A DNA stretch of 64,000 bases, from assembly GCF_963677725.1 (NCBI RefSeq), contig NZ_OY782507.1, positions 1,488,001 to 1,552,000 of the forward strand. Direction: 5' to 3'. Position 1 is the first letter of the stretch; each line of letters opens with the position of its first letter. Position numbers and translations under genes: made by a program. The notes beneath the pieces were generated by a model, which searched no databases, was not told the DNA's origin, and was given only the letters and a program-made list of their open reading frames with translations. Shown piece by piece: positions 523 through 8,695 of this stretch. This DNA comes from an uncultured Cohaesibacter sp. Lineage in GTDB: Bacteria; Pseudomonadota; Alphaproteobacteria; Rhizobiales; Cohaesibacteraceae.

Positions 523-2286
523 TTAGCCTGCGCTATCAAGCGTTTCATTCATTGCGTTGAGGATCACATGGGTCGATTCTGCGCCCGGGTCGATGTGACC
601 AACGGAGCGGAGGCCCAGCTTTTTGGAGCGGCCACGGCGGCTTTCCATGTCGCAGGTCGCATCGGCTCCTGACCGAGCACCGGCTGCCGCTGCAGACAGG
701 ACCGCAGTGCTATCGCCACCCGCCTCAAGCGCCTTGCGGGCCGCTTCTGCTGCAGGCATCCAGGCGTCGATCATGGTCTTGTCGCCCGCGCTGGCCCCCC
801 CGCGACCCAGAATGCCCTTATACATGCCCTCCACCCAGGCGGCCATTGCAGCAGCATCAAGGTTGAGCCGGTCCGAGACCGCCTTGCCTGCGGTGTTGAA
901 GGCGCTGGCATAGAGGGGGCCGGACGACGCGCCGACCGCATCCAGAAAGGCCTTGGCAGACTTGGTGCAGGTCTGGGAGATGGTGTCCTGATCCGAGGCA
1001 CCTTCCAGCGCCTTCAGTACGGCCTTCCAGCCGATATCCATGGTCACCCCGTGATCCCCGTCCCCAATCACACCATCCAGTTCGCTCAGGCGGTCCTTCT
1101 CGGCCGCAATCGCGTTGCCTGCGGCTTGCATCATGGCGCGGAAGATCTCAGGTGTAATCGACCCGTCTGTCTTCAGGCTCGCCCGGTCAATGGCATCCAC
1201 CCGGCTTGTGCCCTCATAGGTCCGCGCGGTGTGGGTAGCACCGGCCACCGGTGCAGGGGCGCTGCCCACCGTCAGAGCGACAGTGCGGCAGGGATGATCC
1301 AGCAGGGATTTGAGATCCTCATCAAGCTTCATCAGCGTGACAGAGGCTCCGGCCATTTCCATCGAGGTGCAATATTCCCCGACCCAGGAATGATAGATCT
1401 TGACGCCCTTCTCCCCAAGGATCTGAGCCACCCGGCGGAAGACCAGATAGAGCTCCATCGGGCTGGTTGCGCCCAAGCCATTGACCAGCACCGCGACTTC
1501 ATCGCCTGCCTTGGGCGCCATTTCCCCAAGGATCATCTCCATCAGCGTCTCGGTCACATGGTCGGCGGTATCCACCTTGCCGCGCCGCATGCCCGGCTCG
1601 CCATGAAGGCCCATGCCGATTTCCATCTCATCGGGGCCGATGTCGAAGTTGGGCTTGAGGGTCTGGGGCATGGAACAGGCCGAGAGGGCCACCCCCATGG
1701 ACAGGGTGGAGGCATTGGCGTGGTTTGCTGCGGCATATACCTCATCCAGCGAGCGACCTTGATCGGCTGCGGCACCGGCGATTTTAAAGACAAAAAAATC
1801 GCCGGCAATGCCGCGCCGCTCACCAGCTTTGTCTTTTGGAGCAGATGCTACATCGTCGCTGACGGCGACCGAGCGCACGTCCATGCCGATCTCGGCGCAT
1901 TCCTCTGCTGCCATGTCGAAGTTCAGCACGTCGCCGGTATAGTTGCCATAAAGAAGGACCACCCCGGCGCCGCCATCAGCGGCCATCGCGGCTTCCTTGA
2001 TATGTTCGGGAGAAGGAGAGGCAAAGACATTGCCAACAGCGGCGGCGTCCGCCAGACCCCGCCCGACATAGCCGGCAAAGGCCGGTTCATGTCCGGACCC
2101 TCCCCCGATAACGATCCCCACCTTTCCATCGCGCGGGCCATCAAGAGCGACCACCGCGCGGCCGGTTTCTCCCTCAAGGCGCAACAGATGGGGATGCGCC
2201 AAAAGCATCCCCTCTACCATCTCGGGGATGATCGTTTCAGGCGCATTCATAAGCTTCTTGGTTGAATGGTCCTGCGTCAGTGACAT
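523..2286 (-). CDS. ATP-dependent dihydroxyacetone/short-ketose kinase, fused DhaK-DhaL
   Basis: This 587-residue enzyme has the two-domain layout of single-chain dihydroxyacetone kinases, which phosphorylate dihydroxyacetone, and in relatives erythrulose, with ATP. The N-terminal DhaK half shows GGGSGHEP and GLHGEPG, the latter holding the His that binds the ketone covalently. The C-terminal DhaL half shows the metal/ATP motif GDGDHG, GASSGPLYAS, GDKTMIDAW and the closing GHIDPGAEST. It is therefore the ATP type and not the PTS-dependent DhaKLM. The start is MSLTQDH, preceded by AGGAGG 5 bases upstream; an in-frame extension to 2364 would encode a repetitive MTGQ-like leader and is unlikely. 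It is the last gene of the pdxA-like/tct operon, separated from the isomerase by a repeat and hairpin region. Its probable job is to feed the pathway product into glycolysis as a phosphate ester. Confidence 0.92.
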   Translation of the reverse strand: MSLTQDHSTKKLMNAPETIIPEMVEGMLLAHPHLLRLEGETGRAVVALDGPRDGKVGIVIGGGSGHEPAFAGYVGRGLADAAAVGNVFASPSPEHIKEAAMAADGGAGVVLLYGNYTGDVLNFDMAAEECAEIGMDVRSVAVSDDVASAPKDKAGERRGIAGDFFVFKIAGAAADQGRSLDEVYAAANHANASTLSMGVALSACSMPQTLKPNFDIGPDEMEIGMGLHGEPGMRRGKVDTADHVTETLMEMILGEMAPKAGDEVAVLVNGLGATSPMELYLVFRRVAQILGEKGVKIYHSWVGEYCTSMEMAGASVTLMKLDEDLKSLLDHPCRTVALTVGSAPAPVAGATHTARTYEGTSRVDAIDRASLKTDGSITPEIFRAMMQAAGNAIAAEKDRLSELDGVIGDGDHGVTMDIGWKAVLKALEGASDQDTISQTCTKSAKAFLDAVGASSGPLYASAFNTAGKAVSDRLNLDAAAMAAWVEGMYKGILGRGGASAGDKTMIDAWMPAAEAARKALEAGGDSTAVLSAAAAGARSGADATCDMESRRGRSKKLGLRSVGHIDPGAESTHVILNAMNETLDSAG

Positions 2287-2318
2287 GGTTGTCCTCCTCA
2301 AATATCTTGTCTGGCATT

Positions 2319-2378
2319 GGCCAGTTACCTGGCCAGTCATCCGGCCAGTCATCCAATCAGTCACCCGGACAGGCAGCA
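2319..2378. repeat. Five tandem copies of a 12-bp repeat
   Basis: Five 12-bp units lie head to tail: GGCCAGTTACCT, GGCCAGTCATCC twice, AATCAGTCACCC and a degenerate GGACAGGCAGCA. They sit between the isomerase and kinase genes, just upstream of the kinase ribosome binding site. The 12-bp period keeps any reading frame. Confidence 0.8.
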
Positions 2379-7714: not shown

Positions 7715-8020
7715 GCAATTAGCCCTTCTTTGCGATCGGTCGACGCCAATCCCTTCAAGGAAACACGCGTCAACGCTCTGCCTAAACTTTTAAGGGGGAT
7801 GTGCCTGGCCGCAACGCGCCACAGCCTGCGATCCAACGCAGGACAAATGACAGATTGCATAGCCTGAACGGATCTTGTTTCGCCATTTTCGCGAACCGAG
7901 ATAATCGTTCAGCTCCTCCTTTGTGTTATGTATAATGCATAATGAATGAGTAACGCAAGGCTCGCCTTTCATTTTTTTTTCGTTATAATCCGGTTGCTCA
8001 AACTGACGTTGGAGGAAACT
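7715..8020. other. Divergent control region of the pdxA-like operon and its regulator
   Basis: The 306 bases between the divergent genes contain no convincing coding sequence. They hold the palindrome at 7926-7942, a run of nine T at 7972-7980, and an AT-rich stretch suited to promoters. The short minus-strand frame across 7790-8041 has no family resemblance. Confidence 0.6.
7926..7942. promoter_or_regulatory. Candidate operator for the GntR/FCD regulator
   Basis: The 17-base near-palindrome TTATGTATAATGCATAA has 8-bp arms with one mismatch around a central A. It lies in the divergent intergenic region, 79 bases upstream of the regulator start. AT-rich short palindromes in this position are typical of FadR-subfamily operators; binding is inferred. 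Confidence 0.55.
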
Positions 8021-8695
8021 TTGCAAGAACTGACAGTGCATTCGGCTGGTCCGGTCGCCATCGAGAAGCTGGCATTACATGATCAGGTGGCGAACCAGAT
8101 TCGTGACATGATCATCGAGGGATATCTAAAACCTGGATCAAGAATCGACGAAGTTGCTCTGGCGAATGAACTGGGGGTTTCCCGCACGCCATTTCGCGAG
8201 GCGCTTCGCACCCTCGCCGCAGAAGGCCTGGTTGTTTCCCAACGCTCAAAGGGGTGCGTTGTGCGGGAGTTCACAGCCAAAGATGTGCGGGATATGCTGG
8301 AGTTTCTGGCTCACATCGAGAAACTCGCCGGAAGAATGGTTTGCAAGAAGGCATCGGATGCAGAGATCGACGATCTGCTTGCCATTCATGAGCAGATGCT
8401 GGAATTTTGGAACAAGCGAGACAGGCTGCCCTATTACAAGCTCAATCAGCAATTTCATTCAAAGCTGTCATTGTATGCTGGCAATGGGGCGCTGTCTGAA
8501 ACGCAGGCCAATCTGCAGGCACGCCTGAAGCGAATCCGATTTATGGGCAATCAACACGCTGACTATTGGGACGATGCGGTGAGCGAGCATCAGGATATGA
8601 TTGATGCCTTGAAGAAACGCGACGGAGACCGCCTTGGCTCCATCCTTGAGGAGCATATCCTCAATTCCTGGATGCGCGTCAAACATCTCTTTTAG
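8021..8695 (+). CDS. GntR-family transcriptional regulator, FadR/FCD type
   Basis: This 224-residue regulator has an N-terminal winged helix (about residues 22-85; DEVALANELGVSRTPFREALRTLAAEGLV) and a C-terminal all-helical FCD domain that usually binds a carboxylate through a metal site (His in QQFHSKL and in VSEHQDM). The start is taken as TTG at 8021 because GGAGGAAACT lies directly upstream in frame. An ATG at 7946 would add a hydrophobic leader unlike the family and has no ribosome binding site. The gene diverges from the pdxA-like/tct operon, which it likely represses until the hydroxy acid ligand is present. Confidence 0.92.
   Translation: MQELTVHSAGPVAIEKLALHDQVANQIRDMIIEGYLKPGSRIDEVALANELGVSRTPFREALRTLAAEGLVVSQRSKGCVVREFTAKDVRDMLEFLAHIEKLAGRMVCKKASDAEIDDLLAIHEQMLEFWNKRDRLPYYKLNQQFHSKLSLYAGNGALSETQANLQARLKRIRFMGNQHADYWDDAVSEHQDMIDALKKRDGDRLGSILEEHILNSWMRVKHLF

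What the first reader, a model, noticed from the sequence alone, without database searches (positions are those of the whole stretch)
523..8695. Operon pairing a PdxA-like enzyme with a DHA kinase but no acid-sugar kinase
Known PdxA2 routes first phosphorylate a four-carbon sugar acid with a DUF1537 kinase, then PdxA2 gives DHAP. This operon (GntR, PdxA-like, TTT importer, TIM-barrel enzyme, DhaK-DhaL) has no DUF1537 kinase but ends with a DHA-type kinase. A reversed order is possible: the PdxA-like enzyme oxidatively decarboxylates an unphosphorylated acid such as threonate or erythronate to dihydroxyacetone, and the kinase then makes DHAP. The family has a precedent for unphosphorylated substrates in TphB. 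An alternative is decarboxylation to erythrulose by the TIM-barrel enzyme before phosphorylation.
Basis: partly seen in the sequence, partly recalled or inferred. Interest (0 to 1): 0.72.

Follow-up and report, generated by a model that had tools for sequence, protein, structure and literature searches.

The report
Sugar-acid operon that likely makes erythrulose

Summary
In detail: 523-8695 carries GntR, a PdxA-like enzyme (PdxAL), TctC/B/A, a TIM barrel and a fused DhaK-DhaL kinase, with no DUF1537 kinase in the operon. Two DUF1537 genes lie elsewhere (one 11 kb away); neither has the operator found here.

"Oxidation before phosphorylation" is supported: 70 of 70 PdxAL sequences compared have lost four residues (E. 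coli H136, T137, N283, R292) that six PdxA/PdxA2 sequences keep and a terephthalate-type member also lost; the metal histidines stay.

The window's genome has such a pair elsewhere. Best reading: a sugar acid (probably C5) is oxidised by PdxAL, decarboxylated to L-erythrulose, phosphorylated, and sent to erythrose 4-phosphate. Against it: the DenD-like partners in related operons pass the D-erythronate (C4) dehydrogenase cut-off.

PdxAL, DenD-like and 3HCDH-type dehydrogenases replace one another beside one TIM barrel. Substrate and TIM-barrel reaction are unproven. New variant of a known kind.

The parts
523..2364 (-). fused DhaK-DhaL (DAK-type) kinase; proposed L-erythrulose 1-kinase; probable true start near 2286
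   Evidence: Pfam Dak1 411.8 and Dak2 151.9 bits; passes NCBIfam NF011049 and DhaL TIGR02365 but not the glycerone kinase equivalog TIGR02361, 393.5 against cut-off 574.95; 80% identical to the DAK of L022, which is divergent from a DeoR-like/TPI pair
2422..3354 (-). xylose-isomerase-like TIM barrel; proposed 3-oxo sugar-acid decarboxylase, or an isomerase/epimerase
   Evidence: Pfam PF01261; closest solved structure 5tnv; presumed metal tetrad E179, D209, H238, E286 (numbered from the start at 3354; named by recalled analogy with ketose 3-epimerases) invariant in 20 of 20 aligned sequences, window included
3424..4947 (-). TctA large permease of the importer
   Evidence: Pfam TctA 514.1 bits
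4944..5426 (-). TctB small permease
   Evidence: Pfam TctB 48.5 bits
5621..6598 (-). TctC substrate-binding protein
   Evidence: Pfam TctC 85.8 bits
6632..7714 (-). PdxA-like dehydrogenase (PdxAL); proposed 3-dehydrogenase of an unphosphorylated sugar acid
   Evidence: Pfam PdxA 258.2 bits; below the cut-off of all 7 NCBIfam PdxA/PdxA2 models that it matched; substrate residues lost, metal histidines kept
7926..7942 (.). palindromic operator TTATGCATTATACATAA
   Evidence: conserved in 4 upstream regions aligned; two perfect places in the genome, both before PdxAL operons
7946..8695 (+). GntR/FCD regulator, divergent
   Evidence: Pfam GntR and FCD

Best explanation
The operon takes up a sugar acid (most likely C5: an L-pentonate or a branched apionate/isoapionate-type acid) through the TTT importer. 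PdxAL oxidises its 3-hydroxyl with NAD, without prior phosphorylation. The resulting 3-oxo acid loses CO2, by the TIM barrel or by PdxAL itself, to give L-erythrulose. The DAK-type kinase makes L-erythrulose 1-phosphate, and LerI- and DerI-type isomerases (in this genome at C1:654468-655953) pass it to D-erythrose 4-phosphate and the pentose phosphate pathway. Shown by sequence: gene content, loss of the substrate residues, linkage to LerI/DerI-type genes in relatives, exchange of dehydrogenases beside one TIM barrel, and the operator. Inferred: every catalytic step, the C5 substrate and the L configuration. My odds that the TIM barrel is the decarboxylase are about one in two.
For: Residues: 70 of 70 PdxAL rows (68 from fetched loci, 2 own) lack H136, T137, N283 and R292 and keep K274 and three metal histidines; 6 of 6 phosphate-type sequences keep all eight; a TpaC-type sequence has lost the same four. 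Linkage: 10 of 80 TIM-barrel loci carry both a TPI-like and an RpiB-like gene within 11 kb. They are contiguous with TIM-DAK in L056 (PdxAL-TctCBA-TIM-DAK-TPI-RpiB), L028, L042 and L073; L164 reads TIM-DAK-TPI without RpiB. Of 9 RpiB-type proteins tested, 6 pass the D-erythrulose-4-phosphate isomerase cut-off, the own-genome one among them. The own genome has the pair side by side, near transketolase and transaldolase-type genes. EltD, LerK, LerI and DerI together supply E4P from tetritols in an E. coli tktAB deletion strain (PMC10733421, passages). In sister genome G119 a TIM-DAK segment of 3,052 bp is 99.8% identical between its PdxAL operon and its DenD operon.
Against: All five DenD-like proteins tested, four of them next to this TIM barrel, pass the D-erythronate dehydrogenase cut-off; if that name holds, the shared TIM-DAK steps would serve a C4 acid and could end in DHA. 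LerI/DerI-type genes adjoin 10 of 80 loci only, and not the window operon; neither that pair nor the own DenD operon has the operator. The TPI-like genes are named plain triosephosphate isomerase by the models, and TPI would suit a DHA route. 3 of 9 RpiB-type proteins miss the DerI cut-off. OtnK and OtnC genes adjoin PdxAL in L020 and L021. DAK is missing nearby in 8 of 80 loci. By fold the TIM barrel is nearest, among proteins of known function, to sugar epimerases and isomerases.
Confidence: 0.5

Rival explanations
1. One reading: PdxAL oxidatively decarboxylates an unphosphorylated C4 acid (threonate or erythronate) to dihydroxyacetone, and the kinase makes DHAP.
For: The kinase is of the DAK family; PdxAL has lost the substrate residues; five of five DenD-like proteins tested pass the D-erythronate dehydrogenase cut-off, and DenD-like genes lie in 14 of 80 loci; OtnK/OtnC neighbours in L020 and L021; no isomerase is needed.
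Against: It gives the TIM barrel no clear role beside PdxAL and does not explain the DerI-type genes contiguous with TIM-DAK. The kinase misses the glycerone kinase equivalog cut-off.
Confidence: 0.25
2. PdxAL itself oxidises and decarboxylates a D-pentonate to D-erythrulose, and the TIM barrel is a ketose 3-epimerase that makes L-erythrulose for the kinase.
For: PdxA enzymes decarboxylate their product (established chemistry). The nearest folds of known function are sugar epimerases and isomerases, and the presumed metal tetrad is kept.
Against: With DenD-like or 3HCDH-type partners (for example GntP-TIM-3HCDH in L165 and L166) no decarboxylase is evident. It misses the D-psicose 3-epimerase cut-off widely, 33.3 against 300.
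Confidence: 0.28
3. PdxAL makes 3-oxotetronate, and the OtnK/OtnC pair encoded 11 kb away finishes the pathway; the DAK kinase is incidental.
For: otnK and otnC lie in the same window, and PdxAL adjoins otnK-otnC in L020 and L021.
Against: 5 of 80 loci have OtnK nearby while 72 of 80 have DAK; the operator does not precede otnK.
Confidence: 0.08

Closest known systems
PdxA2-DtnK (DUF1537) D-threonate pathway
   Same: PdxA-family dehydrogenase in a sugar-acid import operon
   Different: no DUF1537 kinase; substrate residues lost in PdxAL; the kinase is of DAK type. The genome has a separate PdxA homologue beside a DUF1537 gene; those two miss the D-threonate model cut-offs, though the PdxA passes TIGR00557
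TphB/TpaC terephthalate dihydrodiol dehydrogenase
   Same: PdxA-family member on an unphosphorylated substrate; the same four residues lost in the Rhodococcus sequence used, which I call TpaC from its dioxygenase neighbours
   Different: aromatic substrate; the lost residues are replaced by different ones; PdxAL matches 4aty at 93.5 bits against 151.9 for a PdxA2
LerK-LerI-DerI L-erythrulose module of tetritol catabolism
   Same: kinase with TPI-like and RpiB-like isomerases (LerI/DerI/LerK roles from PMC10733421 passages; their protein families recalled)
   Different: fed by a sugar acid through a dehydrogenase and a TIM barrel, not by a tetritol dehydrogenase
D-apionate pathways (ApnL, ApnO, OiaK/OiaX; the OiaC branch is recalled, not seen here)
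   Same: sugar acid to L-erythrulose or its 1-phosphate (recalled), with TPI-like and RpiB-like isomerases in the cluster (L150)
   Different: no ApnO in the 80 loci; OiaX only at the edge of L035; ApnL-like gene in 1 of 80 (L093, 722.7 bits against cut-off 750); no ApnL match in the own genome

Membership tests
PdxA2-DtnK pathway | DUF1537 kinase in the operon or co-regulated | tested here: not met
   none in the operon; operator absent near both DUF1537 genes
PdxA2-DtnK pathway | substrate residues H136, T137, N283, R292 (list recalled) | tested here: not met
   0 of 70 rows keep them
PdxA superfamily | Pfam PF04166 and three metal histidines | tested here: met
   258.2 bits; H166, H211, H266 kept (metal role recalled)
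PdxA / PdxA2 equivalogs (NCBIfam) | curated cut-off | tested here: not met
   7 of 7 matched models below cut-off
LerK-LerI-DerI module | DerI-type isomerase linked to the kinase | tested here: met
   in relatives only: contiguous in L056, L028, L042, L073; RpiB of L056 and L073 passes NF051858, those of L028 and L042 were not scanned; in the own genome the pair is unlinked to the operon
LerK-LerI-DerI module | kinase phosphorylates L-erythrulose at C1 | not testable with these tools
   needs an assay
D-apionate catabolism | ApnO, OiaX or ApnL partner | tested here: not met
   blastp with L150 proteins: ApnL-like in L093, OiaX at the edge of L035, weak ApsD-like matches in L033 and L075; no ApnL in the own genome
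OiaC (3-oxo-isoapionate decarboxylase) | homology to OiaC | not tested
   no OiaC sequence was in hand; its TIM-barrel nature is recalled
ketose 3-epimerases | E-D-H-E metal tetrad (recalled) | tested here: met
   invariant in 20 of 20
ketose 3-epimerases | D-psicose 3-epimerase model cut-off | tested here: not met
   33.3 against 300 bits
Dihydroxyacetone (glycerone) kinase equivalog TIGR02361 | curated cut-off | tested here: not met
   393.5 against 574.95 bits
Tripartite tricarboxylate transporters | TctA, TctB, TctC | tested here: met
   all three above cut-off

The most novel reading that the evidence does not exclude
A non-phosphorylating 'erythrulose hub': three unrelated dehydrogenases (PdxAL, DenD-like, 3HCDH-type) each oxidise a different sugar acid to a common 3-oxo acid. 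One new TIM-barrel decarboxylase turns it into L-erythrulose, which a DAK-type kinase and LerI/DerI send to erythrose 4-phosphate. PdxAL would be a new functional clade of the PdxA family.
Probability: 0.35. Interest if true: 0.7.

Novelty: new variant of a known kind. Interest (0 to 1): 0.55.

Why it matters
[quoted passage not shown] If the reading is right, it adds a route for sugar acids that needs no DUF1537 kinase, suggests a role for a solved TIM barrel that its entry names only by fold (5tnv), and gives a testable assignment for an operon on Sinorhizobium meliloti pSymB.

Tried and rejected
DHA as product: kept as a rival. Co-regulated DUF1537: looked for by operator scan, not found. 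D-apionate as the one substrate: 13 of 385 class genomes had an ApnL match, 1 of 385 over the cut-off; in the 13 regions fetched, several of them short (a second place in G947 was not fetched), no ORF had the TIM barrel as its best panel match, so left open. Fold search for a decarboxylase relative: the 50 rows shown are mostly sugar epimerases and isomerases, with one hydratase and several proteins of unstated function. PdxA structure paper, DUF1537 paper and apiose paper: not held. S. meliloti locus tags guessed from memory: no paper. Control for the LerI/DerI linkage: 9 other own-genome regions holding the other DAK and PdxA genes (166 kb) had none, but at the observed rate only about one would be expected, so this control is weak; contiguity is the stronger argument. 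7 of 80 show neither PdxAL nor DenD.
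Full report
Observation. The genome (4.63 Mb, one contig) holds two DUF1537 matches, five PdxA homologues and eight Dak1 places. One DUF1537 gene is otnK at 19820-21106 of this window, in an ltnD-otnK-otnC-otnI-like set (names by family resemblance, supported where relatives are annotated). The other stands beside a PdxA homologue; that PdxA passes TIGR00557 but neither it nor the kinase passes the D-threonate models. 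Another PdxA lies next to what reads as rsmA, as in E. coli.

Conservation. A scan of genome contigs with an alignment of four TIM barrels gave 560 confirmed relatives, of which the best 80 were kept. By panel blastp, 60 of 80 have PdxAL, 72 of 80 DAK, 59 of 80 both, 14 of 80 a DenD-like gene, 56 of 80 TctA and 5 of 80 OtnK; 8 of 80 lack a DAK nearby. The order GntR / PdxAL-TctC-TctB-TctA-TIM-DAK is annotated in Shinella; in S. meliloti all but the DAK gene are listed, and the DAK was found by blastp. A Paracoccus plasmid has the genes rearranged and followed by an SAF-domain gene, otnK and an aldolase.

Phosphate first or not. In an alignment with E. coli PdxA, the residues H136, T137, K274, N283 and R292 (substrate residues as I recall UniProt P19624; not retrieved) are kept by all six phosphate-type sequences used (E. 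coli PdxA, own PdxA by rsmA, own PdxA by DUF1537, own L110 copy, one PdxA by a DUF1537-like gene in G197, and a Pantoea enzyme annotated D-threonate 4-phosphate dehydrogenase). In PdxAL four of the five are changed in 70 of 70 rows (68 from fetched loci, some close strains, and 2 own); K274 and the metal histidines stay. Of 56 columns invariant in the six, 13 are changed in over 90% of PdxAL rows, so four of five by chance has P = 0.008. A Rhodococcus sequence beside aromatic-ring dioxygenase genes, which I take for TpaC, has lost the same four. PdxAL also misses the cut-offs of all seven PdxA/PdxA2 models that it matched. This supports an unphosphorylated substrate.

What the kinase phosphorylates. 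In 10 of 80 loci both a TPI-like and an RpiB-like gene lie within 11 kb (tblastn check). The clearest is L056 (Ensifer), where PdxAL-TctC-TctB-TctA-TIM-DAK-TPI-RpiB run on one strand with 4 bp between TIM and DAK and 2 bp between DAK and TPI. L028, L042 and L073 read RpiB-TPI-TIM-DAK; L164 reads TIM-DAK-TPI-3HCDH with no RpiB found. Six of nine RpiB-type proteins tested pass the D-erythrulose-4-phosphate isomerase cut-off: L056, L065, L067, L073, the own one and L150; L022, L092 and L102 fall short. L150 is a Rhizobium D-apionate cluster with OiaX, a four-carbon acid sugar kinase, TPI, RpiB and ApnL, where the recalled intermediate is L-erythrulose 1-phosphate. PMC10733421 (passages) describes EltD, LerK, LerI and DerI replacing E4P supplements from L-threitol or erythritol in E. 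coli. The window genome has the TPI-like (67% to L056) and RpiB-like (60%) genes side by side at C1:654468-655953, near a DeoR-like gene, transketolase and a transaldolase-type gene. Hence L-erythrulose rather than DHA. The window-type DAK is 80% identical to that of L022, which lies divergent from a DeoR-like/TPI pair.

Results against it. The window operon lacks the isomerases, and TPI would suit DHAP as well. Five of five DenD-like proteins tested pass the D-erythronate dehydrogenase cut-off (L092, L022, L100, L020; own L140). Four of these (all but L020) lie beside this TIM barrel. If the name is right for them, those operons start from a C4 acid and the shared TIM-DAK steps would end in DHA. 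I suspect that the model name reaches too far, but no result here shows it.

What the TIM barrel does. Its presumed E-D-H-E metal tetrad is invariant in 20 of 20 aligned sequences. The AlphaFold2 model (mean pLDDT 87.3) matches 5tnv best, then UlaE and ketose 3-epimerases at TM 0.6 to 0.7. It occurs with PdxAL, with DenD-like genes (14 of 80), and with a 3HCDH-type dehydrogenase and a GntP permease in L165 and L166. In sister genome G119 the PdxAL operon and the DenD operon share a 3,052 bp TIM-DAK segment at 99.8% identity. In the window genome a second TIM copy (98.6% over 977 bp) sits beside a DenD-like gene and weakly TRAP-like transporter genes, and a second DAK copy (97.0% over 1,754 bp) stands elsewhere. 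So different dehydrogenases appear to feed one TIM-barrel step. A 3-oxo-acid decarboxylase fits these contexts best, by analogy with OiaC (recalled); an epimerase or isomerase cannot be excluded.

Regulation. Upstream regions of four PdxAL operons (own two, G119, G084) share TTATGCATTATACATWA. In the whole genome it is perfect at two places only, before the window operon and before the second PdxAL operon (PdxAL 85% identical, TctC, TctA and an Amidohydro_2 gene); one further place has two mismatches, as many as the control gives. Similar amidohydrolases near relatives match an L-fuconolactonase model far below its cut-off (L019, L067, L084), so a lactone form of the substrate is possible. Neither the isomerase pair nor the own DenD operon has the site.

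Literature. Searches listed no paper on a PdxA-like/DAK/TIM-barrel operon; I saw listings only (30 of 65 for, 40 of 70 for, 25 of 32), and the library holds only open PMC papers. Passages only were read of PMC12540250 (L-threonate pathway), PMC9997740 (PdxA2), PMC10971088 (DUF1537), PMC6225978 (ascorbate products), PMC10580937 (Brucella erythronate genes) and PMC10733421.

Noticed in passing
window 2372-3348 and 545-2298; L140, L113, L141, L143: TIM and DAK genes exist as near-identical second copies inside genomes (97-99.8% DNA) while the sister genomes' copies match the window at 84-89%: recent duplication or gene conversion.
   Followed up: partly
L109 5428-10710 (C1:3881000-3900000): Second PdxAL operon with TctC, TctA and an Amidohydro_2 gene, under the same operator, without TIM barrel or kinase in the stretch.
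   Followed up: partly
L021 13225-14622, L103, L167; 9 of 80 loci: A gene with DRL_cat and SAF domains recurs beside PdxAL operons; role unknown.
   Followed up: no
L154 and L155: More distant PdxA-like enzymes (40-43%) with E in place of H136 sit beside L-rhamnonate dehydratase genes, with no DUF1537 listed in the stretch: another probable unphosphorylated clade.
   Followed up: no
L185, L186: ApnL-like genes below cut-off lie beside DenD-like genes with OtnI, OtnK and OtnC nearby, so ApnL-like lactonases may serve more than D-apionate.
   Followed up: no
window 18869-22514: ltnD-otnK-otnC-otnI-like L-threonate/D-erythronate set 10 kb from the operon.
   Followed up: partly
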